DNA of 64,000 nt, taken from positions 20,543 through 84,542 of IMG/VR virus record IMGVR_UViG_3300025274_001348. One strand, written 5' to 3'. Made by a program: the position numbers and the translations under genes. The stretch's first letter is position 1, and each line of letters begins with the position of its first letter. Origin of the DNA: a virus. The notes under the pieces were generated by a model, which worked only from the letters and a program-made list of their open reading frames with translations, was not told the DNA's origin and did no database searches. This document shows, one piece after another, positions 3,606-16,123 of this stretch.

Positions 3606-3718
3606 TTTAACAGCACCGAAGATGGTGTAGGTGTTACACAGGTGCGTGAGGGAGGAACCATCAAACCTCCACGATTAAAGTGGTAGTGAAACATACACCC
3701 GCCTGTTTTTTTATTTTT
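3606..3718 (+). terminator. structured intergenic region ending in T tract
   Basis: Contains nested helices: ACAGG (about 3638) with CCTGT (about 3703), and inside it CGT/GGAGG pairing CCTCC/ACG around 3644-3673. The outer arm is followed by TTTTTTTATTTTT. This fits a rho-independent terminator with a branched stem, or a structured leader of the GMP reductase gene. It does not match the purine riboswitch core I know. Confidence 0.45.
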
Positions 3719-3730
3719 GAGGTGGATCAG

Positions 3731-4819
3731 TTGAAGTTTGAAGACGGAATTAAACTGGATTTTGACGATGTTCTTATCAGACCGAAAAGATCCACCCTTA
3801 GTAGTCGGTCTGGGGTTGATATACAGAAGGTGTATGATTATCTTCACGCTCCAGTTAAAGAGGCTGTTGTTCCTATTGTAGCCGCTAACATGGACACGGT
3901 AGGGACTATGGCTATGTCTGAACAGTTGAGTCCGAATGGGATGCTAACCTGTTTACATAAATACTACAGCGTAGACGAGCTAGTAAACTTCTTTGCTGAA
4001 GCACCCAGATTGGATACTTTTTATACACTGGGCATTAAACAGGAAGATGTCGAAAAATTAATAGATGTTAACGATGAGCTTCCTCGTTTAGACGAGGGTG
4101 GTCTAGGAATACATAAGATATGTATTGATGTGGCAAACGGTTATCAAAAGGTGTTTGTTGACCATGTTAAACGCATAAGAAATATGTTTCCTGACACTAT
4201 CATCATGGCAGGTAATGTGTGTACGCCAGAGATGGTGAGTGAGTTGCTTATCAGTGGTAAGGCCGATATAGTCAAAATAGGAATAGGACCGGGAAGCGTA
4301 TGCACAACAAGAATGGTAACGGGTTGCGGTTATCCTCAGTTGTCGGCCATAATAGAGTGTGCGGATGCTGCGCATGGTTTAGGAGGACATATTTGCGCAG
4401 ACGGAGGATGCAGAACTTCGGGAGATGTTGTCAAGGCATTCGCTGCCGGGGCCGATTTCGTTATGCTGGGGGGCATGTTGGCAGGGACAGACGAGTGTGA
4501 GGGAAAATGGGAAGAAGAATCTGAAATTCTTAAGAATGACAAAGGTGGATACACTGTAAGTGGTAAAAGAGTGAAGAAATCTTTACGCTTTTATGGGATG
4601 TCTAGCGAGGAGGCTATGGATGCTCATAATGGTGGAGTTGGAACCTACAGAACTTCGGAAGGTAAATCTGAATCAGTAGTCTATAAAGGTCCGGTCATGG
4701 GTGTCATTCAGGAGGTTACGGGGGGCCTAAGAAGTGCTTGTGCCTATGTAGGAGCAAACTCTCTCAAAGACTTCCCAAGGTGTGCAACTTTCGTCAGAAC
4801 AAATAGGGTTCACTACTAA
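3731..4819 (+). CDS. guaC: GMP reductase
   Basis: GMP reductase converts GMP to IMP with NADPH. The 362-aa protein has no CBS domains, unlike IMP dehydrogenase, and carries the IMPDH/GMPR loop GIGPGSVCTTR with catalytic Cys191. GCADAAHGLGG-type and FYGMSSEEAM segments and the ending GGLRSACAYVGA are GMP-reductase-like. I prefer TTG 3731 because GAGGTGG at 3719-3725 precedes it; the upstream ATG 3680 lies inside the structured region. The stop overlaps the aldolase start (TAATG). In a phage it may recycle guanine nucleotides of the host into the purine pool. Confident family call. Confidence 0.9.
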   Translation: MKFEDGIKLDFDDVLIRPKRSTLSSRSGVDIQKVYDYLHAPVKEAVVPIVAANMDTVGTMAMSEQLSPNGMLTCLHKYYSVDELVNFFAEAPRLDTFYTLGIKQEDVEKLIDVNDELPRLDEGGLGIHKICIDVANGYQKVFVDHVKRIRNMFPDTIIMAGNVCTPEMVSELLISGKADIVKIGIGPGSVCTTRMVTGCGYPQLSAIIECADAAHGLGGHICADGGCRTSGDVVKAFAAGADFVMLGGMLAGTDECEGKWEEESEILKNDKGGYTVSGKRVKKSLRFYGMSSEEAMDAHNGGVGTYRTSEGKSESVVYKGPVMGVIQEVTGGLRSACAYVGANSLKDFPRCATFVRTNRVHY

Positions 4820-5793
4820 TGCAAAACACTATAGACAAACTGGCCGAATACGGTAAGGGTATTTTGGCAGCAGATGAAAGCATCCCAACGATTGAAAAAA
4901 GGTTAAGCTCGGTTGGGATAGATTCTACACCGAGTACGAGACACAACTACAGGCACACGTTATTTTCCACTGACGGATTAGAAGACTACATCAGTGGTGT
5001 TATCCTGTATGACGAAACCCTGCGAAGCGCCGTTGATGGTGAGCCTACTGTCGCCCCTCTTAGAGAAAAGGGGATAGCTTTAGGTATCAAGGTGGACAAG
5101 GGAGCGAAACCCTATACGGATGGCGGGTTCTTAACGGAGGGGTTAGATGGACTCACAGAAAGACTCAGAGACTATAAAGACTTGGGGGCCGAATTCGCTA
5201 AGTGGCGTGCTGTTATTAATATTGGTGATAGCGGTTCTTGCATCCTTGCAAACGCTTGGCATCTTGCGAGATATGCTAAAAAGTGCCAACTTGAAAACAT
5301 GGTTCCCATTGTAGAACCAGAAGTTATTATGGATGGCACACACACAATATATGATTCTATCAGAATAACTGAAAGAGTTTTACATCATGTGTTCGATGCT
5401 ATGTTCTACGAGAAGGTTGAACTGGAGTATATGATTCTAAAGCCAAATATGATTTTACATGGATATAAGTATGCTAGCAGCATTAGCAGTGATGAAGTAG
5501 CTGAACTAACAGTTAGCTCTCTTAGACGAGCAGTTCCAGCAGCAGTACCCATGATTGCTTTTTTAAGTGGTGGTCAAATTGACGGAATGGCTGTGGAAAA
5601 TCTTAATGCTATAAATGGATGTATTTCTCTTCCTTGGTACACATCATTTTCATTTGGCAGAGAATTACAACAAAACTCTTTAAGACTTTGGGCCGAAGGG
5701 AAAAGGGAAGATGCACAGAACGCTTTGTTGGAAAGAGCTAATCAATGCAGTCTAGCAACACAAGGCGAGCTTCATGGGACGGTTAATATATAA
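4819..5793 (+). CDS. class I fructose-bisphosphate aldolase
   Basis: Cleaves fructose-1,6-bisphosphate to DHAP and glyceraldehyde-3-phosphate through a Schiff base. 324 aa, close to the usual length. All hallmark segments are present: GILAADES, GIKVDKG, AKWRAV, PIVEPEV and LKPNM with the Schiff-base Lys208, then FLSGGQ. It overlaps guaC by one base and is probably cotranslated. Phages more often carry transaldolase; a class I aldolase is uncommon. Expected effect is redirecting central carbon in the infected cell, which is inference. Confidence 0.92.
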   Translation: MQNTIDKLAEYGKGILAADESIPTIEKRLSSVGIDSTPSTRHNYRHTLFSTDGLEDYISGVILYDETLRSAVDGEPTVAPLREKGIALGIKVDKGAKPYTDGGFLTEGLDGLTERLRDYKDLGAEFAKWRAVINIGDSGSCILANAWHLARYAKKCQLENMVPIVEPEVIMDGTHTIYDSIRITERVLHHVFDAMFYEKVELEYMILKPNMILHGYKYASSISSDEVAELTVSSLRRAVPAAVPMIAFLSGGQIDGMAVENLNAINGCISLPWYTSFSFGRELQQNSLRLWAEGKREDAQNALLERANQCSLATQGELHGTVNI

Positions 5794-6109: not shown

Positions 6110-7147
6110 ATGTCAAAGAACAATAGCGAATTTTATTCAAGCCTTATATCCAAGGCGACAATGCGGTCAGCCAATACGGATACCCCAAAAACTGTTGCTG
6201 TTCTTGGAGCAGGTGCTATGGGAATGGGTATTGCTTTTGCTTTGGCTAACAAAGCATCCATTAACGTCAACCTATATGATATAGATGTCGGCCAATTTAA
6301 GTTGGCTAAAGATATTCCATTAATCAGAACCACAACCGATCTGTCAGAGGCGATTGAATCTTCCGATCTCGTTATAGAGGCAGTTCCAGAGGTTCTCTCA
6401 TTAAAGAGAGAAGTTGTCTCCAAGTGTGTAGATCAGTTCGTTGCTACAAACACTTCAACATTTAAAGTAGAAGACATATCATCCAGAAGCAATTTTGGAG
6501 GAATGCACTTCTTTAATCCTGTCTCTAAAATGCCTCTCGTTGAGGTAGTTTCAGGACCATCTACCTCAGAAGAAACTATAGCTATTCTATGTAAGACATC
6601 CTTAGCCATGGGAAAAATACCACTGATTTGCAATGACTGTAGTGGATTTGTAGTCAATCGTATGTTGATGCCATATTTGATTGAGTTTGATAAGATGGTC
6701 TCAGAAGGCCATGACTATTCTCATATAGATACGGTTATGAGAAATCATGGATGGCCTATGGGTCCAGCAGAACTCTGTGATCTTGTTGGCCTTGATGTTA
6801 TCTACCACGGGTCTCAAAGCATAGCAGAAGCATACGATCATATAACTGTTTCTGATAATAGCGTATGCCATCAACTATACAAAAATAAAGACTTCGGAAG
6901 AAAGTCGCATAGAGGATTTTATAGCTACGATGTCATATCAGGTAAAAAAGCTGGTAGATTCTCTGTGCCGGGAGAGACTAGGGAATCATCTCATGTAATT
7001 GCAGACAGGCTTGTCTCTCCCATGCTTAATGAGGCCAGAATGCTCCTTGACGAGAATATAGTTGATAGTGTCGAAGAGATAGATGTGGCATTAGCTTTAG
7101 GGGCGGGACTTCCGCCGTTTATTACAACTGTGGCGGAAATGACATAA
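6110..7147 (+). CDS. 3-hydroxyacyl-CoA dehydrogenase
   Basis: NAD-dependent oxidation of 3-hydroxyacyl-CoA to 3-ketoacyl-CoA. Residues about 28-50 form the Rossmann fold (VAVLGAGAMGMGIAFALA), followed by GMHFFNPVSKMPLVEVV with the catalytic His and Glu. The C-terminal helical domain contains GFVVNRMLMPYL and MGPAELCDLVGLD. 345 aa, longer than the 280-aa monofunctional type because a second short C-terminal domain remains, but no hydratase domain. tmRNA starts 15 nt downstream. Together with the acyl-CoA dehydrogenase at the window start it gives two oxidative steps of acyl-CoA breakdown. Confidence 0.9.
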   Translation: MSKNNSEFYSSLISKATMRSANTDTPKTVAVLGAGAMGMGIAFALANKASINVNLYDIDVGQFKLAKDIPLIRTTTDLSEAIESSDLVIEAVPEVLSLKREVVSKCVDQFVATNTSTFKVEDISSRSNFGGMHFFNPVSKMPLVEVVSGPSTSEETIAILCKTSLAMGKIPLICNDCSGFVVNRMLMPYLIEFDKMVSEGHDYSHIDTVMRNHGWPMGPAELCDLVGLDVIYHGSQSIAEAYDHITVSDNSVCHQLYKNKDFGRKSHRGFYSYDVISGKKAGRFSVPGETRESSHVIADRLVSPMLNEARMLLDENIVDSVEEIDVALALGAGLPPFITTVAEMT

Positions 7148-7161
7148 GTGTTTAACAATAA

Positions 7162-7496
7162 GGGGGCGATTGGCTTCGACTGGTAGTGGAGATAATAGTT
7201 GCATGGAGTGGTTGGTCAGTTGGCCACTATAAAAGCTGACCAAAAAGTAATTGCCGAAAAGCAATTCGCGTTGGCTGCCTAGAGTAGTCAGGGGTTGCAC
7301 AAACCTTTTTATCCAATTGTGCTGACTCCGATAATCGGATAGGGATGGCTAACCCAAAAATAACGCCTGATGACCATAATGGTCTGATGATGGTCAATCC
7401 ATCTAGTTTTGTCTGCTGTGCGATAACAACAGACTAACCATGTAGAAGTTATTGTTTAAGCTATACAGGACGCGGGTTCGATTCCCGCCGCCTCCA
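7162..7496 (+). ncRNA. ssrA: tmRNA (transfer-messenger RNA)
   Basis: 5' end GGGGGCG pairs with 3' CGCCTCC (7489-7495), discriminator A7496. The third pair is G3-U70, the alanyl-tRNA synthetase identity element. The T-arm is GCGGG-TTCGATT-CCCGC, and TGGCTTCGACTGG is the conserved tmRNA 5' block. A tag reading frame starts at GCT 7235 and ends at TAG 7280, encoding ADQKVIAEKQFALAA, with the ALAA ending recognised by ClpXP. One-piece, 335 nt, CCA not encoded. It rescues stalled ribosomes and marks the products for proteolysis. No SmpB gene is seen in the window, so host SmpB would be used. Phage-encoded tmRNA is rare. Confidence 0.96.
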
Positions 7497-8195: not shown

Positions 8196-8601
8196 TAAGT
8201 CTGTCCAAATAGCCTGTCAACTTTTTCCTGAGCGATATGAGAATACACAAAGCTGTAAGGCTTTTCATTTTGCTTTTCTGTGGAAAAAGAACAGGCTTAT
8301 TTCTATTGGCCAGAACTATGCAGATAAGCCGTGCGCTAAAGCATTATACTTTGCGAAAAGATTTAATACAAAACGCCGCATTAAATATCCCTACATTCAC
8401 GCTGAGATCAATGCGGTACAAAAGGTGTGGGGAAAATCCCAGATAGATAATTCGTTCAGCTTGGTTTCTCTCAGAGTGTCTAGAGATTGTGTTTTAAGAA
8501 ACGCCAAGCCTTGTAAAGATTGTCAAACCGTATTGTCTGCTATCGGAGTAGGTGACATTTGGTGGTCGAATAAAATTGGAGAGGTTGTATGTGTGGAATA
8601 A
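8173..8601 (+). CDS. cytidine/dCMP deaminase-fold protein
   Basis: 142 aa with the zinc-dependent deaminase motifs: HAE (in PYIHAEINAV) followed by PCKDC. In this family the His and two Cys bind zinc and the Glu shuttles protons. The region before HAE is divergent from dCMP deaminases such as the one at 40941, so substrate may be a free base, a nucleoside or an RNA base. Overlaps both neighbours, indicating tight cotranslation with the following glmS. Confidence 0.75.
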   Translation: MINQKNIDKSVQIACQLFPERYENTQSCKAFHFAFLWKKNRLISIGQNYADKPCAKALYFAKRFNTKRRIKYPYIHAEINAVQKVWGKSQIDNSFSLVSLRVSRDCVLRNAKPCKDCQTVLSAIGVGDIWWSNKIGEVVCVE

Positions 8602-10373
8602 TAGGATGTATTGGAACAGATACTATAGACACAGTAATCACAGGCATGAGGCGAATGGAATACCGTGGCTATGATAGCTATGGATTCTGTGCCTTCAAAA
8701 ATGATTCCAAATTTCTCTACAAAGATGTTGGGCTGGTATCTAGAAATACAAATCTCAATGGCTATTCCCATGCACTAAGGGGCTATACTTCTGCAATAGG
8801 TCATACCAGATGGGCAACTCATGGCGAGGTCACAAAAGAAAATGCTCATCCACAGTATGACGAACAAGAAACTATATTTGTTGTTCACAATGGTACGGTA
8901 GATAATTCTCCATCTGATATGTTGGATACGCAGTATATAGTTCAGCAATTAAAACTACGCCTTACCAAACACTGGATGACCGTCAAAAGCCCAGACCGTT
9001 TTACAGAACCCCTGCGAGAACAAGTCCCACTAACACCAGAAGACTATCTTCTCACGGTCAATGCAGTAACACAAAAACTAGAAGGTGATAATGCATTCCT
9101 AGTGTCCTTCTCAAGCCTGCCAGATTATATTTTCTGTGCCACCAAAGGCTCTAAGTCACTGTTAGTTACAGATAATGGACACGTTAGCAGCGATTCGTAT
9201 GCGATATCGGGCAAGGCGAAAGAGGCTCGAAGAATTAAGAACTCTGTGGTGTGCTTATCTTCCAAGGGGATAATATCTAGTGTGAAACCGTTTAGCTCAT
9301 CTGCGAAGATAGAAACAGTGCCAGAGCAACAGGAACATAAATTATCTGAGCCTCACTTCATGCTGCAAGAGATTAAAGAACAATACTCTCTTATGGAGGA
9401 TATGGGTAATTATCCTATGTACCATCCTCCGTTTCGGCCAGAGAGATTAAACCTGATTGGGTGTGGAAGTAGCTACTATGCAGCTATGTGGGCAAAGGTT
9501 TGGTTTGAGACGATTGCAAGGATTCCCACTACCGTAACTTATGGAAGTGAAGCCTTCAATCTCACTCTTAAAGACCCAAACGCAACCGACATCTACATAA
9601 GCCAAAGCGGAGAAACTAAAGATATTATTCGTGCATCCCGTGATGCTAAGTCAGACAGCGTTTTTGTAGTTACAAACAATATTAATTCCCACCTAGGAAA
9701 TTCTTTCTTTCACACAATTGATATTGGCGCAAACATTGAACGAGGAGTTGCCGCTACTAAAACCTTTACTCTAACCTGTTATGCGCTATGGGAGCTTGCT
9801 TGGCACTGGTCATCTGAATCTGAAGAAAACGAACTTAAAGTGTTAGACTACCAAGACGCCCTAGCCGAAGGAATTAAGCATGTGCTTGATCGTGAACAAA
9901 CCGTAGCGACTATTGCAAAGATGATAGCCCAGTATGACAACGCTCTATTCTTAGGTAGACATTGGGACTACCCAATAGCCTTAGAGGGCGCACTTAAGTT
10001 AAAGGAAGTTAGTTACATTCACGCAGAGGGTATGCCAGCAGCAGAAATGAAGCATGGACCCATCGCCTTGGTGGATGAAAAGACTCCAAGCATATTTACT
10101 GTTACCGGCTCTTTCGACATAGACACAATTATTTCTAACATGAGAGAGGTTAAATCCAGAAACGGAAAAGTGTTTGCTGTTGTTAGTCCTGTAAACTATG
10201 ACAGAGTAAAAGAAGTTGCAGACTGGACTTTCCGAACATGCGATATTCACGGTGTGGCAATGCAGCCACTTGTAGCAAATGTTGTCCTACAGTTACTTGC
10301 GTATCACGTAGCTGTTGAAAAAGGACTTAACCCTGACCGCCCCCGTAACCTAGCCAAGAGTGTAACCGTATAA
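8589..10373 (+). CDS. glmS: glucosamine-6-phosphate synthase
   Basis: Makes glucosamine-6-phosphate from fructose-6-phosphate and glutamine. 594 aa, normal length. MCGIIGCIG provides the N-terminal nucleophile Cys after Met removal; HTRWATHG belongs to the glutaminase domain. Two SIS domains follow (GCGSSYYAAMWAK and the GALKLKEVSYIHAEG segment) and the C-terminus LAKSVTV is the family's conserved tail. With the GNA1-like acetyltransferase at 39315 it could feed UDP-GlcNAc synthesis for phage-directed glycosylation. Confidence 0.95.
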   Translation: MCGIIGCIGTDTIDTVITGMRRMEYRGYDSYGFCAFKNDSKFLYKDVGLVSRNTNLNGYSHALRGYTSAIGHTRWATHGEVTKENAHPQYDEQETIFVVHNGTVDNSPSDMLDTQYIVQQLKLRLTKHWMTVKSPDRFTEPLREQVPLTPEDYLLTVNAVTQKLEGDNAFLVSFSSLPDYIFCATKGSKSLLVTDNGHVSSDSYAISGKAKEARRIKNSVVCLSSKGIISSVKPFSSSAKIETVPEQQEHKLSEPHFMLQEIKEQYSLMEDMGNYPMYHPPFRPERLNLIGCGSSYYAAMWAKVWFETIARIPTTVTYGSEAFNLTLKDPNATDIYISQSGETKDIIRASRDAKSDSVFVVTNNINSHLGNSFFHTIDIGANIERGVAATKTFTLTCYALWELAWHWSSESEENELKVLDYQDALAEGIKHVLDREQTVATIAKMIAQYDNALFLGRHWDYPIALEGALKLKEVSYIHAEGMPAAEMKHGPIALVDEKTPSIFTVTGSFDIDTIISNMREVKSRNGKVFAVVSPVNYDRVKEVADWTFRTCDIHGVAMQPLVANVVLQLLAYHVAVEKGLNPDRPRNLAKSVTV

Positions 10374-10873: not shown

Positions 10874-11290
10874 ATGACAATGGGTGGAAGCGAAAAGAGA
10901 TTAATAGTAGACTGCGACGGAGTTATAGCCGATAAAGACCACGGTGGTATATATGCGAATGCTGGCCCCTTACAGCACGGTATCGACCAAGTAAATAAAC
11001 TGTATGACATGGGATATGAAATCGTACTATATACAGCGAGATATGGAGATCGAGAAAAGGGTAACATAAATAGACAATATGAACGTGGATATGTAGAATG
11101 GGTGAAGTGGCTGAAGGATCACGGTGTTAAATATCACCACGCATTTATGGGCAAGATTGCTGGAGTTCTCTATATAGACGATAAGGCTGCTAGAGTCAAC
11201 AGTGATAGTGAAGACGGGTGGGAAGACGTGTGGAAGGAAATAGATGACCTTACAGACAGAGATAGATACGGGAGGAAAATCGTGTCATGA
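10874..11290 (+). CDS. HAD-superfamily phosphatase-like protein
   Basis: 138 aa. Haloacid dehalogenase motifs in order: IVDCDGVIAD (motif I, nucleophile and acid Asp), LYTARYGD (motif II Thr), MGKIAG (motif III Lys) and YIDDKA (motif IV acidic pair). Usually phosphatases of small phosphometabolites; close in layout to capsule-biosynthesis phosphatases. AAGGAG at 10861 sets the start. First protein gene of the metabolic run 10.9-16.1 kb, overlapping the next gene by 4 nt. Confidence 0.8.
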   Translation: MTMGGSEKRLIVDCDGVIADKDHGGIYANAGPLQHGIDQVNKLYDMGYEIVLYTARYGDREKGNINRQYERGYVEWVKWLKDHGVKYHHAFMGKIAGVLYIDDKAARVNSDSEDGWEDVWKEIDDLTDRDRYGRKIVS

Positions 11291-11787
11291 AACTAGATCA
11301 TATTGCCTACAGGGTAAAAGGTAGACATGAGGCAGCAGAGTTCTTTTATTCGATGTTCGGTTACGAGTTTGGAACCGAATTTGATGTAGAATTTGATGAT
11401 GGCTCCAAGGCCGAATGTTATGTCCTCCTTCCACCAATAAATCCATCTATTTTAGTTCGTGAAGGACCGGAGATATTTATATCTGACGGAAGTCCCGGCT
11501 CAATTGTCGGGGATTGGGTTGAGGCTAGGGGTGGTATTGGTGGTATACATCATATAGCTTATAAGGTAAGAGATATAGACGCTGTTGTTGATGAATGGAA
11601 GAAACAAGGCATTGTCGAGTTTCTTACAGACGATGTAATCGAATGTCCAGACGACGACCTTCGGCAAATTTTTACTAAACCCTTGGAATACGTAGGTGGA
11701 ATAATTATCGAACTGATTGAAAGAGGATCTAAAGGATTCTGTGAAAAGTCAGTTAAGGACTTAATGAATAGCACGAAAGGATTATAA
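11287..11787 (+). CDS. VOC-family metalloprotein (glyoxalase/epimerase/dioxygenase fold)
   Basis: 166 aa with two beta-alpha-beta-beta-beta repeats: MKLDHIAYRVKG at the start and GIHHIAYKVRDID near residue 88, ending IIIELIER. These place metal ligands His and Glu as in methylmalonyl-CoA epimerase and 4-hydroxyphenylpyruvate dioxygenase relatives. Reaction cannot be told from sequence. ATGA overlap with the HAD gene and one-base overlap with the aldehyde dehydrogenase suggest a role in the same pathway. Confidence 0.75.
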   Translation: MKLDHIAYRVKGRHEAAEFFYSMFGYEFGTEFDVEFDDGSKAECYVLLPPINPSILVREGPEIFISDGSPGSIVGDWVEARGGIGGIHHIAYKVRDIDAVVDEWKKQGIVEFLTDDVIECPDDDLRQIFTKPLEYVGGIIIELIERGSKGFCEKSVKDLMNSTKGL

Positions 11788-13271
11788 TGGGAACTTATAC
11801 GATTACTCAAGGATTACACTATGTCAATGGTCAATGGACCGGAGGAAGCCAACAGGCGGCGTTTGACAGCAAGAATCCAGCAACAAAAGAAATTATAGGA
11901 TCTTTTCCTCAAGCCACTCAGTCAGAAGTTGACTCCACATACCATTTTGCAAGAGATTCTTTTTACGGGTGGAGGGAGTATGGCAGGGTGCGACGAGCCG
12001 AATATTTCCTCAAGCTAGCTAGCCTGATCGAAAAAAGAAAAGATGAAATTGCAAAAATGATCAGCATCGAAACGGGTAAGGTATACAACGAGTCTGTTGC
12101 AGAAGTGAACGAAGCTCTACACATGGCACAATATGCATTTAGTACAGGGAGGATGCCTTATGGTGAAGCAATCGCGTCAGAACTACCTGAAAAAGATGCT
12201 TACATGCTTCGCAAACCAAAGGGTGTGGTCGCAATTGTCGCTCCTTTTAACTTTCCTTTTGCTATTGGTGGTTTTTGGTGTGCCGCACCTGCTTTGGTTG
12301 AGGGAAATACTGTCATACTAAAACCAAGTGAAGATACCCCTTTAGTGGGACAATTAACGGCAGAACTATATCACGAAGCTGGATTTCCACCGGGAGTATT
12401 CAATCTACTTCACGGTGACGGCGAAGTTGGAGATATGTTGATTCATCAGGATGTAGACCATGTATGTTTTACGGGAAGCGCCGATGTGGGCATGCACGTC
12501 AGAAAAGTTTGCGCTGAAAGTTGGCACAAGTCTTGTTCGTGTGAGATGGGTAGTAAGTCTGCTGTAATCATCCACGAAGATGCCAACTATGATATGGCTA
12601 TGGCTGCTTGTCTTGCTAGTGCATATAAACTTTCTGGACAAAGATGTGTGTCTGCCGGTAGGCTAATTGTTCATAGATCTTTATATCACCAGTTTGCAGA
12701 AGAATTTGCTGCTAGAAGTGCAATGCTAAAGACTGGCGATCCGTTTAATGAAAACACTTTCTACGGTCCACTGATAAATCGACAGGGGTTGGACAAGGTT
12801 ATGCACTTCAATAGCATTGTATTTAACGACAAGGACGTAGACGTGCTGCTTGCCGGGGTTAGAATTGTTGAAGACGGATTATTTATGACTCCTACGGTTT
12901 ATAAAACCGAATGGAAAGATGCTCCGTACCTAAAGAATGAAGTGTTTGGGCCTCATGTATCTATTATCCCCTATGATAGAGTTTCAGAAGCTATTAATAT
13001 TTATAACGATACTGATTACGGATTAGCTCTTGGAGTAGTAACCGAAAACTTTAAAGTTGCCAGAAGGGTTCGTAATGAATGTGATTTTGGTCTTGGTTAT
13101 TGGAATGGTGGTAGTATTGCGGCTGAGTCTCATCTTGGATTCGGAGGAGTAAAGAAATCTGGAAATGGGCAACCTAGCGCTGCTCGTACTTTTAGATCTG
13201 TTACTCACGAAGTTGCTTGGACCGTCAATCATGGAGATACTCTTAACTTTCCTCAAGGCATGAACTCTTGA
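11787..13271 (+). CDS. aldehyde (amino-acid semialdehyde) dehydrogenase
   Basis: 494 aa NAD(P)-dependent aldehyde dehydrogenase. Cofactor segment PFNFPFAIGGFWCAAPALV then KPSEDTP, catalytic Glu253 (CEMGSK) and nucleophile Cys287 (SGQRCVS), and NEVFGP toward the C-terminus. The ending GFGGVKKSGNGQPSAA is typical of semialdehyde dehydrogenases. Because an L-lysine 6-transaminase lies 0.8 kb downstream in the same run, the likely substrate is 2-aminoadipate 6-semialdehyde, giving 2-aminoadipate. Family certain; substrate inferred from context. Confidence 0.9.
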   Translation: MGTYTITQGLHYVNGQWTGGSQQAAFDSKNPATKEIIGSFPQATQSEVDSTYHFARDSFYGWREYGRVRRAEYFLKLASLIEKRKDEIAKMISIETGKVYNESVAEVNEALHMAQYAFSTGRMPYGEAIASELPEKDAYMLRKPKGVVAIVAPFNFPFAIGGFWCAAPALVEGNTVILKPSEDTPLVGQLTAELYHEAGFPPGVFNLLHGDGEVGDMLIHQDVDHVCFTGSADVGMHVRKVCAESWHKSCSCEMGSKSAVIIHEDANYDMAMAACLASAYKLSGQRCVSAGRLIVHRSLYHQFAEEFAARSAMLKTGDPFNENTFYGPLINRQGLDKVMHFNSIVFNDKDVDVLLAGVRIVEDGLFMTPTVYKTEWKDAPYLKNEVFGPHVSIIPYDRVSEAINIYNDTDYGLALGVVTENFKVARRVRNECDFGLGYWNGGSIAAESHLGFGGVKKSGNGQPSAARTFRSVTHEVAWTVNHGDTLNFPQGMNS

Positions 13272-13272
13272 A

Positions 13273-14076
13273 ATGAATAATATTCTTGTATGTCCACCCA
13301 CCTTTTATGGCGTTAACTATGAAATTAACGCTTGGATGGATGCAAGTATGGATGTTGATTACAAGAAAGCAGATTTACAATGGCTGAAGATGTGCGACAG
13401 GCTTATAAGGTCCGGGGGGTATCTCAAATATATAGATCCTCATTCAGATTATCCAGACATGGTCTTTACTGCTAACGCAGGTTTTGTGCATGGTAAAACT
13501 GTGATATTGTCTAACAATAGACATAAAGAGCGTCAAGGAGAAAGCCCGTTATTTAAGCAATGGTTTCTAGATCACGGGTATAGGGTCATAGAGCTTCCTA
13601 AACACATCTTTTTTGAAGGAGCAGCCGACGCCATATTTATAAACGATGTTTTGTTTATGGGATATGGTTTTAGAACAAGCAAAGAGGCTCATTCAATAAT
13701 TGCAAACGTATTTAATGTCGAATATGTTTCCTGTGAATTAGTTGATCCACATTTTTATCATTTAGACACCTGTTTTTTCCATATGAAGGATAGGGTCATT
13801 TATTACAGAGAAGCCTTCTCTCATAAATCAATTGAAGGAGCCATAGAAAAATTGATAGAAACATGTCTATTTACGCAGGTGCCATTAGACATACTAAACG
13901 TGGCTGAATCTCAAGCTAAACAATTTATATGTAACAGTATAGAAATTGATAATAACATCGTCACTCCTTCTGTTGATTGTGACGATACGTTTGGTAACCA
14001 TAGTGTATTCATGTGTGATATGTCAGAATTTATGAAGGCTGGAGGAGCAACAAAATGTCTAACTCTCAAGCTATAA
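13273..14076 (+). CDS. arginine deiminase/dimethylargininase-fold hydrolase
   Basis: 267 aa member of the guanidino-modifying (GME) superfamily, which acts on arginine, methylarginine or related guanidino or ureido groups. FTANAGFVHG near residue 67 binds substrate, His163 lies in FYHLDTCFF, and Cys262 sits in GGATKCLTL near the C-terminus, the usual nucleophile place. Shorter than arginine deiminase and closer to dimethylargininase or citrulline-hydrolase-type proteins. Overlaps the transaminase gene by 22 nt. Could yield ornithine or citrulline; exact reaction unknown. Confidence 0.8.
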   Translation: MNNILVCPPTFYGVNYEINAWMDASMDVDYKKADLQWLKMCDRLIRSGGYLKYIDPHSDYPDMVFTANAGFVHGKTVILSNNRHKERQGESPLFKQWFLDHGYRVIELPKHIFFEGAADAIFINDVLFMGYGFRTSKEAHSIIANVFNVEYVSCELVDPHFYHLDTCFFHMKDRVIYYREAFSHKSIEGAIEKLIETCLFTQVPLDILNVAESQAKQFICNSIEIDNNIVTPSVDCDDTFGNHSVFMCDMSEFMKAGGATKCLTLKL

Positions 14077-15284
14077 ATACCTTGTCTCAGTACATTCTGA
14101 CCGATGGTTTTCATGTTGTTGTTGACCTAGATAAAAGTCAAGGTTCTTGGATAGTAGATGCTGAAAATGGAAAGAAGTATTTAGACTGTTATTCCCAATT
14201 TGCTAGTCAACCTCTAGGCTGGAATCATCCCGCTCTAATCAACGCCCAAGAGGAACTAGGGCGCGTAGCTATGCACAAGTTGGCAAATAGTGACATGTAT
14301 TCAAAGCCCTATGTTGAATTCGTAGAAAAATTTGCGGACATCACAAGAGATTTTAGACACTACTTTTTTGTTGATGGTGGGACACTAGCGGTAGAAAATG
14401 CATTAAAAGCTGCTTTTGATTGGAAGGCGCAAAAACTAGGATATACAATAGACATGAGTCCCAGCCTAAATGAAGCTCTTGCCAATAAACTTGATGTTAT
14501 ACATTTTAGCAATGCTTTTCACGGAAGAAGCGGATATTCAATGTCTATTACAAATACAGATCCTAATAAAACCAGATGGTTTCCATCCTTTAATTGGACC
14601 CCTGTTAATGACCCGTCTGATATAGAGCATAAAATGCACGGTGATGTAGCGGCAATAATTATAGAGCCGATACAAGGTGAAGGAGGAGATATACACTTTA
14701 ACAGAGCGGCGTTCCGGCACCTTAGAAAAATGGCATATAAGTATGACGCAATGTTAATATTTGACGAAGTTCAAACCGGGTTAGGACTTACAGGAAAAAT
14801 GTGGGGGTACAAACATTTTAGTGGCGTAATGCCTGATATGATTTGTTTTGGTAAGAAGACTCAGGTGTGTGGCTTTTGTTGCACAAATAGAATCAATGAA
14901 GTTCCCGACAACGTATTCACCGTCTCCTCCAGAATTAACTCTACATGGGGAGGAAATATTGTGGACATGGTTAGATTCTGCCATATCATAGATGCAATAG
15001 AAGAAAATAATCTTGTAGAGAATGCAAAAACTATAGGTGAATACCTCCTCGGAAAGTTGGTTATTGTAGATGGCATTTCAAACGTCAGAGGCAGAGGCTT
15101 AATGATAGCCTTTGATTTGTCTAACGAATCAGAACGAGACAAAATGATGGAATTGCTATCCGAAAATATGTTGGTTCTAAAATGTGGCAAGAAATCTATA
15201 AGACTAAGACCTCATCTTACATTCTCAAAAGAGGATGCTGATTTTGCCCATTCCTACATAGAGAAAGCGGCGGGGGAACTATGA
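14055..15284 (+). CDS. lat: L-lysine 6-transaminase
   Basis: 409-aa class III PLP aminotransferase. It matches lysine epsilon-aminotransferases rather than ornithine or GABA transaminases: FFVDGGTLAVENALKAAFDWK, then FDEVQTG, then FGKKTQVCG with the PLP Lys (267 or 268), then SRINSTWGG. The enzyme converts L-lysine plus 2-oxoglutarate to 2-aminoadipate semialdehyde (cyclising to piperideine-6-carboxylate) plus glutamate. The upstream aldehyde dehydrogenase would oxidise the product. I know of no common phage occurrence. Four-base overlap with the next gene. Confidence 0.88.
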   Translation: MSNSQAINTLSQYILTDGFHVVVDLDKSQGSWIVDAENGKKYLDCYSQFASQPLGWNHPALINAQEELGRVAMHKLANSDMYSKPYVEFVEKFADITRDFRHYFFVDGGTLAVENALKAAFDWKAQKLGYTIDMSPSLNEALANKLDVIHFSNAFHGRSGYSMSITNTDPNKTRWFPSFNWTPVNDPSDIEHKMHGDVAAIIIEPIQGEGGDIHFNRAAFRHLRKMAYKYDAMLIFDEVQTGLGLTGKMWGYKHFSGVMPDMICFGKKTQVCGFCCTNRINEVPDNVFTVSSRINSTWGGNIVDMVRFCHIIDAIEENNLVENAKTIGEYLLGKLVIVDGISNVRGRGLMIAFDLSNESERDKMMELLSENMLVLKCGKKSIRLRPHLTFSKEDADFAHSYIEKAAGEL

Positions 15285-16123
15285 ACATTCAAACCGTGGG
15301 AATCATTGGTCAGGGATTTGTAGGAAGCGCATTGGGTTGCGCCTTTGCTCAACATTATAAGGTGTATACTTACGATAAAATGCTTACAGATCTATCCACA
15401 CATAAAAGCGTGCATGGGCTGTCCAGAGATTGCGATTTGCTTTTTGTCTGTGTCCCAACCCCAATGAGGGAAGATGGGTCTTGCGATATCTCAATAGTCA
15501 AAGAAGTTGTTCAAGAAGCCTGTAGCACCGGAAGAAGAAACATAATTGCCATTAAATCCACGGTCCCTCCTAATACTACTAAGACGTTACAAGAGCTATG
15601 TCAAGATTCTCAAATAGTTTTTAACCCGGAGTTTCTACTTGAAAGAAACGCTGAAGAAGATTTTCGCAACACTAGTCGAGTCATTTTAGGTGGCCCTAGA
15701 CCAGCAACAACTAGGCTGAAACAATTCTATTCAAAAATCTTTCCTAATGCCCATATCATAAAAACCGACTCCACTATAGCAGAGATGGTTAAGTATCTTA
15801 CTAATTCATTTCTTGCGGTTAAAGTTTCATTCGCTAATGAAATGTACGCCATCTGCAAAAATCTAGATATAGACTACGACAAGGTAGCTGAATATGCCTT
15901 GCACGATGACCGTCTAGGAAATACACACTGGGCCGTTCCCGGTCCCGATGGTCACTATGGATTTGGAGGAAGCTGTTTTCCAAAAGATATAAATGCGTTA
16001 ATGCATCTCGCACAAACTCTGTGTATAAAAGCCAACACAATAGAAGGAGCTTGGAACACTAATCTCATGGCTAGGCCAGAGAAGGACTGGGAAACTCTCA
16101 AAGGTAGGGCAGTAATCGAGTAA
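15281..16123 (+). CDS. UDP-glucose/GDP-mannose dehydrogenase family, short form
   Basis: 280 aa against about 400-450 for the family. Rossmann NAD domain (VGIIGQGFVGSALGCAFA) and central domain with FNPEFLLER and the catalytic Cys in GGSCFPKD are present. The C-terminal UDP-binding domain is missing. NAD-dependent oxidation of a nucleotide sugar to the uronate is the family reaction; the short form may act with a partner or on another substrate. Such shortened versions fit the sugar-gene content of this phage. Confidence 0.82.
   Translation: MNIQTVGIIGQGFVGSALGCAFAQHYKVYTYDKMLTDLSTHKSVHGLSRDCDLLFVCVPTPMREDGSCDISIVKEVVQEACSTGRRNIIAIKSTVPPNTTKTLQELCQDSQIVFNPEFLLERNAEEDFRNTSRVILGGPRPATTRLKQFYSKIFPNAHIIKTDSTIAEMVKYLTNSFLAVKVSFANEMYAICKNLDIDYDKVAEYALHDDRLGNTHWAVPGPDGHYGFGGSCFPKDINALMHLAQTLCIKANTIEGAWNTNLMARPEKDWETLKGRAVIE

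What the first reader, a model, noticed from the sequence alone, without database searches (positions are those of the whole stretch)
10874..16123. Phage-borne lysine to 2-aminoadipate cassette
L-lysine 6-transaminase and a semialdehyde dehydrogenase make a complete two-step route from lysine to 2-aminoadipate, in one overlapping gene run with an arginine-deiminase-fold hydrolase, a VOC protein and a HAD phosphatase. I know of no described phage system of this kind. It could channel host amino acids into glutamate/NADH, or make an unusual amino-acid group for glycan or DNA decoration.
Basis: partly seen in the sequence, partly recalled or inferred. Interest (0 to 1): 0.74.

Follow-up and report, generated by a model that had tools for sequence, protein, structure and literature searches.

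The report
Phage arginine/lysine-degrading gene cassette
A marine phage carries a tightly packed, conserved gene run that looks able to turn its host's arginine (through ornithine) and lysine into glutamate or 2-aminoadipate plus ammonia and reducing power, and parts of it recur in dozens of other viruses; the enzymes' real substrates are still untested.

Summary
Six overlapping ORFs (HAD, VOC, ALDH, ADI-fold, class-III transaminase, UDP-glucose-dehydrogenase-like) lie at 10874-16123 of an IMG/VR virus record, and 16 other viral contigs carry the ALDH-ADI-LAT core. The transaminase belongs to the lysine-6-transaminase (LAT) family. ADI, LAT and this ALDH also co-occur, unlinked, in two huge phages. 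The ALDH fails the piperideine-6-carboxylate dehydrogenase model by a wide margin, and its nearest sampled cellular relatives are haloarchaeal ALDHs, four of six beside proline dehydrogenase. Best reading: arginine to ornithine to glutamate semialdehyde to glutamate, probably with lysine to 2-aminoadipate in parallel. Lysine is not excluded: related viruses pair the same VOC-ALDH with a lysine-dehydrogenase-like enzyme, and the LAT keeps LAT-type pocket residues. No activity has been shown. New combination of known enzymes; mechanism confidence about 0.5.

The parts
10874..11290 (+). HAD-superfamily phosphatase-like protein, 138 aa
   Evidence: EcbF/BcbF capsule phosphatase model 6.3e-13, below cut-off; DCDG motif invariant in 9 cassettes; a HAD of this sort also lies near ALDH in 26 of 63 other viral ALDH loci
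11287..11787 (+). VOC (glyoxalase-fold) protein, 166 aa, methylmalonyl-CoA-epimerase/HPPD-like, substrate unknown
   Evidence: PF13669 9.1e-10; candidate metal ligands H5, H88/H89, E142 invariant; the same gene lies directly upstream of ALDH in 35 of 61 other viral loci with an ALDH ORF called
11787..13271 (+). Amino-acid semialdehyde dehydrogenase (ALDH superfamily), 494 aa
   Evidence: PF00171 1.2e-127; C287 and E253 invariant; viral clade sister to haloarchaeal ALDHs mostly beside proline dehydrogenase
13273..14076 (+). Arginine-dihydrolase-like ADI-fold enzyme, 267 aa
   Evidence: ArgZ 2.6e-54 and AgrE 1.3e-53 are the only solved relatives; D62, N68, E115, D119, R134, H163, D165, N221, C262 conserved in 75 sequences but for one D119E
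14055..15284 (+). Class-III transaminase of the L-lysine 6-transaminase family, 409 aa
   Evidence: TIGR03251 1.8e-141; Mtb LAT 2cin 2.4e-100; tree; conserved Lys-Lys pair 267/268
14055..14076 (+). 22-nt overlap of the ADI 3' end with the LAT 5' end; the LAT start codon overlaps the ADI catalytic Cys codon, and a purine-rich GGAGGAG-like stretch lies upstream
   Evidence: same 22-nt overlap in all 17 cassettes
15281..16123 (+). Short UDP-glucose/NDP-sugar dehydrogenase-like protein, 280 aa, no C-terminal domain matched
   Evidence: TIGR03026 7.7e-59, above cut-off; GFGGSCFPKD motif invariant; next to LAT in most cassettes

Best explanation
The run is a phage operon that degrades dibasic amino acids by way of their omega-semialdehydes. 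Inferred steps: (1) the ADI-fold enzyme, an arginine dihydrolase, splits host L-arginine into L-ornithine, CO2 and 2 NH4+; (2) the LAT-family transaminase moves the terminal amino group of ornithine to 2-oxoglutarate, giving glutamate and glutamate semialdehyde, and probably also takes lysine, giving aminoadipate semialdehyde; (3) the ALDH oxidises the semialdehyde with NAD(P)+ to glutamate (from arginine) or 2-aminoadipate (from lysine). Net from arginine: two glutamates (one at the cost of 2-oxoglutarate), 2 NH4+, CO2 and NAD(P)H, which a phage that also encodes GlmS, an IMPDH/GMP-reductase-family enzyme and RNR could use for nucleotide and amino-sugar synthesis. Shown by sequence: families, conserved catalytic residues, gene coupling, co-occurrence. 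Inferred: all substrates, products and the benefit. The roles of VOC, HAD and UGD stay open.
For: ADI: ArgZ/AgrE are the only solved relatives at E<=0.001 (2.6e-54; no other ADI or DDAH chain). The alignments show that the residues changed in the solved variants 6juz (Asn) and 6jv1 (Cys) are kept. H163-x-D165 has Asp, as in arginine deiminases, where DDAHs have Lys (PMC11659421). AgrE/ArgZ make ornithine (PMC8262935). Coupling: ADI lies directly 5' of LAT with a 22-nt overlap in 17/17 cassettes. Co-occurrence away from the cassette: ADI+LAT+ALDH unlinked in G059 (381 kb) and G142 (511 kb); LAT+ADI in G065. Among 47 other ALDH viruses the only one with LAT is the only one with ADI. Cellular precedent: mycobacterial ADI homologue next to rocD, and Rv2323c is needed for arginine use (PMC4569260). 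ALDH: viral ALDHs sister to haloarchaeal ALDHs (100 SH-aLRT), four of six next to proline dehydrogenase; joining the phage ALDHs to the non-PCD ALDHs beside cellular LATs is rejected (p-AU 0.0014). A LAT of the fungal type (only 26% identical to bacterial LAT) uses lysine and ornithine (PMC9854754).
Against: The transaminase keeps LAT features: Phe49 where OAT-like enzymes have Tyr, and Arg385 where they have Ala. Relatives pair the same VOC-ALDH with a lysine-dehydrogenase-like enzyme, and five cassettes hold it besides LAT, which points to lysine. LR756511 has LAT+ALDH but no ADI found. About 50 other viral ADI-fold genes fetched here are not beside LAT or ALDH. The ADI score is 234 against a cut-off of 450. 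Grouping the phage ALDH with PCDs is not rejected at 0.05 (p-AU 0.066). Haloarchaeal ALDH function is inferred from neighbours only, and the nearest cellular ALDH was sought only in the plasmid collection and 15 genomes.
Confidence: 0.5

Rival explanations
1. Lysine to 2-aminoadipate is the real function: LAT makes aminoadipate semialdehyde, ALDH oxidises it, and the ADI-fold enzyme runs a separate arginine reaction that only shares the operon.
For: LAT-family placement and LAT-type residues; cellular LATs are often beside an ALDH, some passing the P6C dehydrogenase model; related viral VOC-ALDH loci carry a relative of L-lysine dehydrogenase (3abi, profile E 9.4e-37, TM 0.85).
Against: Does not explain the invariant ADI-LAT overlap or the ADI+LAT+ALDH sets in two huge phages. 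Phage ALDH scores 275 of 730 on the P6C dehydrogenase model.
Confidence: 0.25
2. The cassette makes an amino-acid building block (for example glutamate, 2-aminoadipate or a cyclic imine) that is attached to a phage or host glycan; UGD, HAD and nearby glycosyltransferases belong to the same pathway.
For: UGD overlaps LAT by 4 nt and HAD overlaps VOC by 4 nt; UGD also follows ALDH in 5 non-cassette loci and HAD is near it in 26; L002 has glycosyltransferase-like ORFs just upstream of ALDH (by eye); the window has GlmS and glycosyltransferases.
Against: No amide-forming or amino-acid-transferring enzyme was found in the run; UGD lacks a matched C-terminal domain; genes of this sort are common in phages.
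Confidence: 0.15
3. The genes are neighbours by shared regulation or recent gene traffic only and act in unrelated reactions.
For: The surroundings are rich in other metabolic genes (acyl-CoA dehydrogenase-like, IMPDH/GMP reductase, aldolase, 3HCDH, GlmS) and cassette order varies upstream of VOC.
Against: Core order and the 22-nt overlap are constant over about 50-73% ADI identity; ADI+LAT+ALDH recur unlinked in other viruses.
Confidence: 0.1

Closest known systems
Cyanobacterial arginine catabolism by AgrE/ArgZ and PutA (arginine to ornithine to proline to glutamate; PMC8262935)
   Same: Starts with the same type of arginine dihydrolase domain and is proposed to end in glutamate by a semialdehyde dehydrogenase step
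   Different: Here there is no fused ornithine cyclodeaminase; a LAT-family transaminase would take ornithine straight to the semialdehyde, and the genes are in a phage
Mycobacterial ddaH/Rv2323c-rocD cluster (PMC4569260)
   Same: ADI-fold gene directly followed by a class-III omega-transaminase gene
   Different: The mycobacterial partner is an ornithine transaminase (RocD), not LAT family; no VOC-ALDH pair was seen beside it
LAT plus P6C dehydrogenase route to 2-aminoadipate (cephamycin producers, Flavobacterium, Mycobacterium; PMC9854754)
   Same: LAT-family transaminase with a semialdehyde dehydrogenase
   Different: Phage ALDH is not the PCD type by curated model and is grouped apart; an arginine dihydrolase is added; cassette LATs lack a segment of about 15-20 residues that other LATs have
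Other viral VOC-ALDH loci with lysine-dehydrogenase-like genes (L286-L345)
   Same: Same VOC, same ALDH clade, often HAD, sometimes UGD
   Different: A lysine-dehydrogenase-like gene stands where ADI-LAT stands here; a few cassettes hold both

Membership tests
L-lysine 6-transaminase (TIGR03251 LAT_fam) | score at or above the curated equivalog cut-off | tested here: not met
   471.6 bits, cut-off 520.8; best model by 250 bits
L-lysine 6-transaminase (TIGR03251 LAT_fam) | phylogenetic place in the LAT family, apart from OAT-like class III | tested here: met
   viral LATs one clade (100*), with cellular LATs against 8 class-III outgroup rows
L-lysine 6-transaminase (TIGR03251 LAT_fam) | PLP lysine and conserved Arg/Glu positions | tested here: met
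   K267/K268, R158, E209, R383, R385 invariant in cassettes; which Lys binds PLP rests on knowledge of the family
L-lysine 6-transaminase (TIGR03251 LAT_fam) | family segment between window residues 181 and 190 | tested here: not met
   10-11 residues against 24-34 in all other LATs
L-lysine 6-transaminase (TIGR03251 LAT_fam) | activity on lysine | not testable with these tools
   no assay
Arginine dihydrolase (NF052232; ArgZ/AgrE N-terminal domain) | curated cut-off | tested here: not met
   233.7 bits, cut-off 450; still among the top two models
Arginine dihydrolase (NF052232; ArgZ/AgrE N-terminal domain) | catalytic Cys, His, Asp/Glu and the dihydrolase Asn | tested here: met
   C262, H163, D165, E115, N68 kept in 75 sequences, aligned to ArgZ; the Asn as dihydrolase marker is from knowledge, the ArgZ paper was not held
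Arginine dihydrolase (NF052232; ArgZ/AgrE N-terminal domain) | ornithine formed from arginine | not testable with these tools
   no assay
L-piperideine-6-carboxylate dehydrogenase (NF050084) | curated cut-off | tested here: not met
   275.5 bits, cut-off 730; LAT-adjacent cellular ALDHs L090, L053, L110 pass
L-piperideine-6-carboxylate dehydrogenase (NF050084) | one clade with PCDs | tested here: inconclusive
   separate in the tree; forced grouping p-AU 0.066
Glutamate-semialdehyde (P5C) dehydrogenase | curated models TIGR01237 / NF002852 | tested here: not met
   283 and 306 bits, cut-offs 660 and 648
Glutamate-semialdehyde (P5C) dehydrogenase | kinship with ALDHs beside proline dehydrogenase | tested here: met
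   sister to 6 haloarchaeal ALDHs; proline dehydrogenase beside four; one has class-III AT and GdhB instead, one is unannotated

The most novel reading that the evidence does not exclude
A mobile, modular viral pathway for dibasic amino acids: a VOC-ALDH core receives semialdehyde either from a lysine-dehydrogenase-like enzyme or from an arginine dihydrolase plus LAT, and spreads among marine phages up to huge-phage size, so that arginine and lysine of the host are burnt to glutamate/2-aminoadipate during infection.
Probability: 0.4. Interest if true: 0.75.

Novelty: new variant of a known kind. Interest (0 to 1): 0.6.

Why it matters
Auxiliary metabolic genes of phages are mostly single enzymes; a conserved multi-gene run with an invariant gene overlap, whose parts also co-occur unlinked in huge phages, suggests a selected pathway. 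If right, phages break down protein amino acids for nitrogen and reducing power. It can be tested with three purified enzymes. It would also name part of a family of VOC-ALDH viral loci found in scores of contigs.

Tried and rejected
Single-sequence ADI scan of viral contigs found nothing; the alignment scan found 89. Ornithine-transaminase identity of LAT: rejected by tree. DDAH or plain arginine deiminase: no such solved chain matched. ADI beside LAT in cells: none within the 80 cellular LAT loci; 16 of 46 genomes have an ADI-fold match at E<=0.001, only five of them strong full-length ones. ADI or ALDH in the 16 LAT-only viral records tested: none; LAT relatives there lie near glutamate dehydrogenase in two loci checked. 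VOC structure: mean pLDDT 69, fold search gives methylmalonyl-CoA epimerase and HPPD with poor superposition, no viral match; no function assigned. Thiolase in the contig: none. Papers: none held with the terms used for a phage lysine-6-transaminase or arginine/ornithine route; this library is partial. Searches failed for technical reasons; the ArgZ and AgrE structure papers were not held.

Full report
Setting. The window is part of an 84,542-bp IMG/VR virus record with phage genes for RIIA, ribonucleotide reductase, a DnaB-like helicase, DNA polymerase, a UvsX-like recombinase and primase. The finding sits in a long + strand run. Third-position GC of the cassette genes (0.32-0.40) is close to that of the other phage genes checked (0.35-0.43), so it does not look like very recent foreign DNA.

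Anatomy. Six ORFs: HAD, VOC, ALDH, ADI-fold, LAT-like transaminase, UGD, with spacings -4, -1, +1, -22 and -4 nt. Sixteen other viral contigs keep ALDH-ADI-LAT; some are near copies of one another (for example L009/L034 and L012/L014). ADI and LAT overlap by 22 nt in all 17. The LAT start codon overlaps the codon of the ADI catalytic cysteine, so the protein constraint may help to hold the overlap; it shows a shared ancestral layout rather than many independent events.

The ADI-fold gene. It is arginine-dihydrolase-like: ArgZ 2.6e-54 and AgrE 1.3e-53 are the only solved matches, and NCBIfam arginine dihydrolase is among its top models though under the cut-off. Nine residues including Cys262, His163, Asp165, Glu115 and Asn68 are kept in 75 viral and cellular sequences, with one Asp119Glu exception. 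Arginine deiminases carry Asp where DDAHs have Lys two residues after the catalytic His (PMC11659421); this protein has Asp. AgrE makes ornithine on the way to proline (PMC8262935). Mycobacteria pair a homologue with rocD, and Rv2323c is needed for arginine use in M. tuberculosis (PMC4569260).

The transaminase. It is in the LAT family by model, solved-structure sequence match and tree, but the cassette LATs have lost 15-20 residues in one segment. They keep LAT-type residues rather than OAT-type ones, so lysine must be considered a substrate. A fungal LAT, only distantly similar to the bacterial ones, uses both lysine and ornithine (PMC9854754); bacterial LAT activity on ornithine was not found in the papers held.

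The ALDH. It has the catalytic Cys and Glu but reaches no curated equivalog. Cellular LATs often sit beside an ALDH, either a P6C dehydrogenase (passing NF050084) or a second type. The phage ALDH belongs to neither group: it forms a viral clade that is sister, in this sample, to haloarchaeal ALDHs, four of six beside proline dehydrogenase and one beside a class-III transaminase and GdhB. The AU test rejects grouping with the second type (0.0014), not clearly with PCDs (0.066).

Wider viral distribution. Scans found 90 relatives of the ALDH, 50 of LAT and 89 of the ADI in viral contigs (lower bounds, pattern-based). Of 63 other ALDH loci examined, 61 had the ALDH ORF called; 35 of these have the same VOC directly upstream, 26 a HAD of the same sort, 5 a UGD, and 22 a saccharopine-dehydrogenase-fold gene nearby. 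The best solved relative of that last gene is P. horikoshii L-lysine dehydrogenase (profile E 9.4e-37; predicted structure pLDDT 86, TM 0.85 on the target). Five cassettes (L002, L003, L004, L015, L034) hold it after LAT or UGD; the window and the first 20 kb of its record have none. The cassette label needs three changes on the ALDH tree, so ADI-LAT has been joined to or lost from VOC-ALDH more than once. Two huge phages have ADI, LAT and ALDH unlinked (G059, where LAT is near glutamate dehydrogenase; G142).

Reading. The coupling of ADI with LAT and the ALDH kinship favour arginine to glutamate; LAT residues and the lysine-dehydrogenase-like partner favour lysine to 2-aminoadipate. The simplest account of both is one semialdehyde module with two feeds, with arginine specific to this version. 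I give 0.5 to this, 0.25 to lysine alone, 0.15 to a glycan building block and 0.1 to unrelated neighbours. No substrate has been shown.

Noticed in passing
57-1685, 6110-7147, and L264:18143-19111 (contig upstream of the window): Acyl-CoA dehydrogenase-like, 3-hydroxyacyl-CoA dehydrogenase and enoyl-CoA hydratase genes in one phage contig: three of four beta-oxidation steps; no thiolase found.
   Followed up: partly
3680-4819, 4819-5793, 8589-10373: IMPDH/GMP reductase-family gene, class I fructose-bisphosphate aldolase and GlmS next to the cassette.
   Followed up: no
7162-7496: tmRNA gene in the phage, tag AEKQFALAA; might help to find the host.
   Followed up: no
L135-L198: Many viral ADI-fold arginine-dihydrolase-like genes away from LAT and ALDH, with catalytic residues kept.
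   Followed up: partly
L021, L024, L265 (G059): Viral LAT relatives close to a glutamate dehydrogenase gene.
   Followed up: partly
L012:3176-3541; similar gap in L013-L015: A 121-aa SET-domain ORF between ALDH and ADI in L012; gaps of 361-364 nt at the same place in L013-L015.
   Followed up: partly
G065:C1:169550-170797 (L259): LAT relative with one in-frame TAA: pseudogene, error or recoding.
   Followed up: no
phages collection, e.g. CAKLQF02/CAKLQH02 records: Records named as Acinetobacter phage hold many ordinary bacterial metabolic genes and look like bacterial contigs.
   Followed up: no
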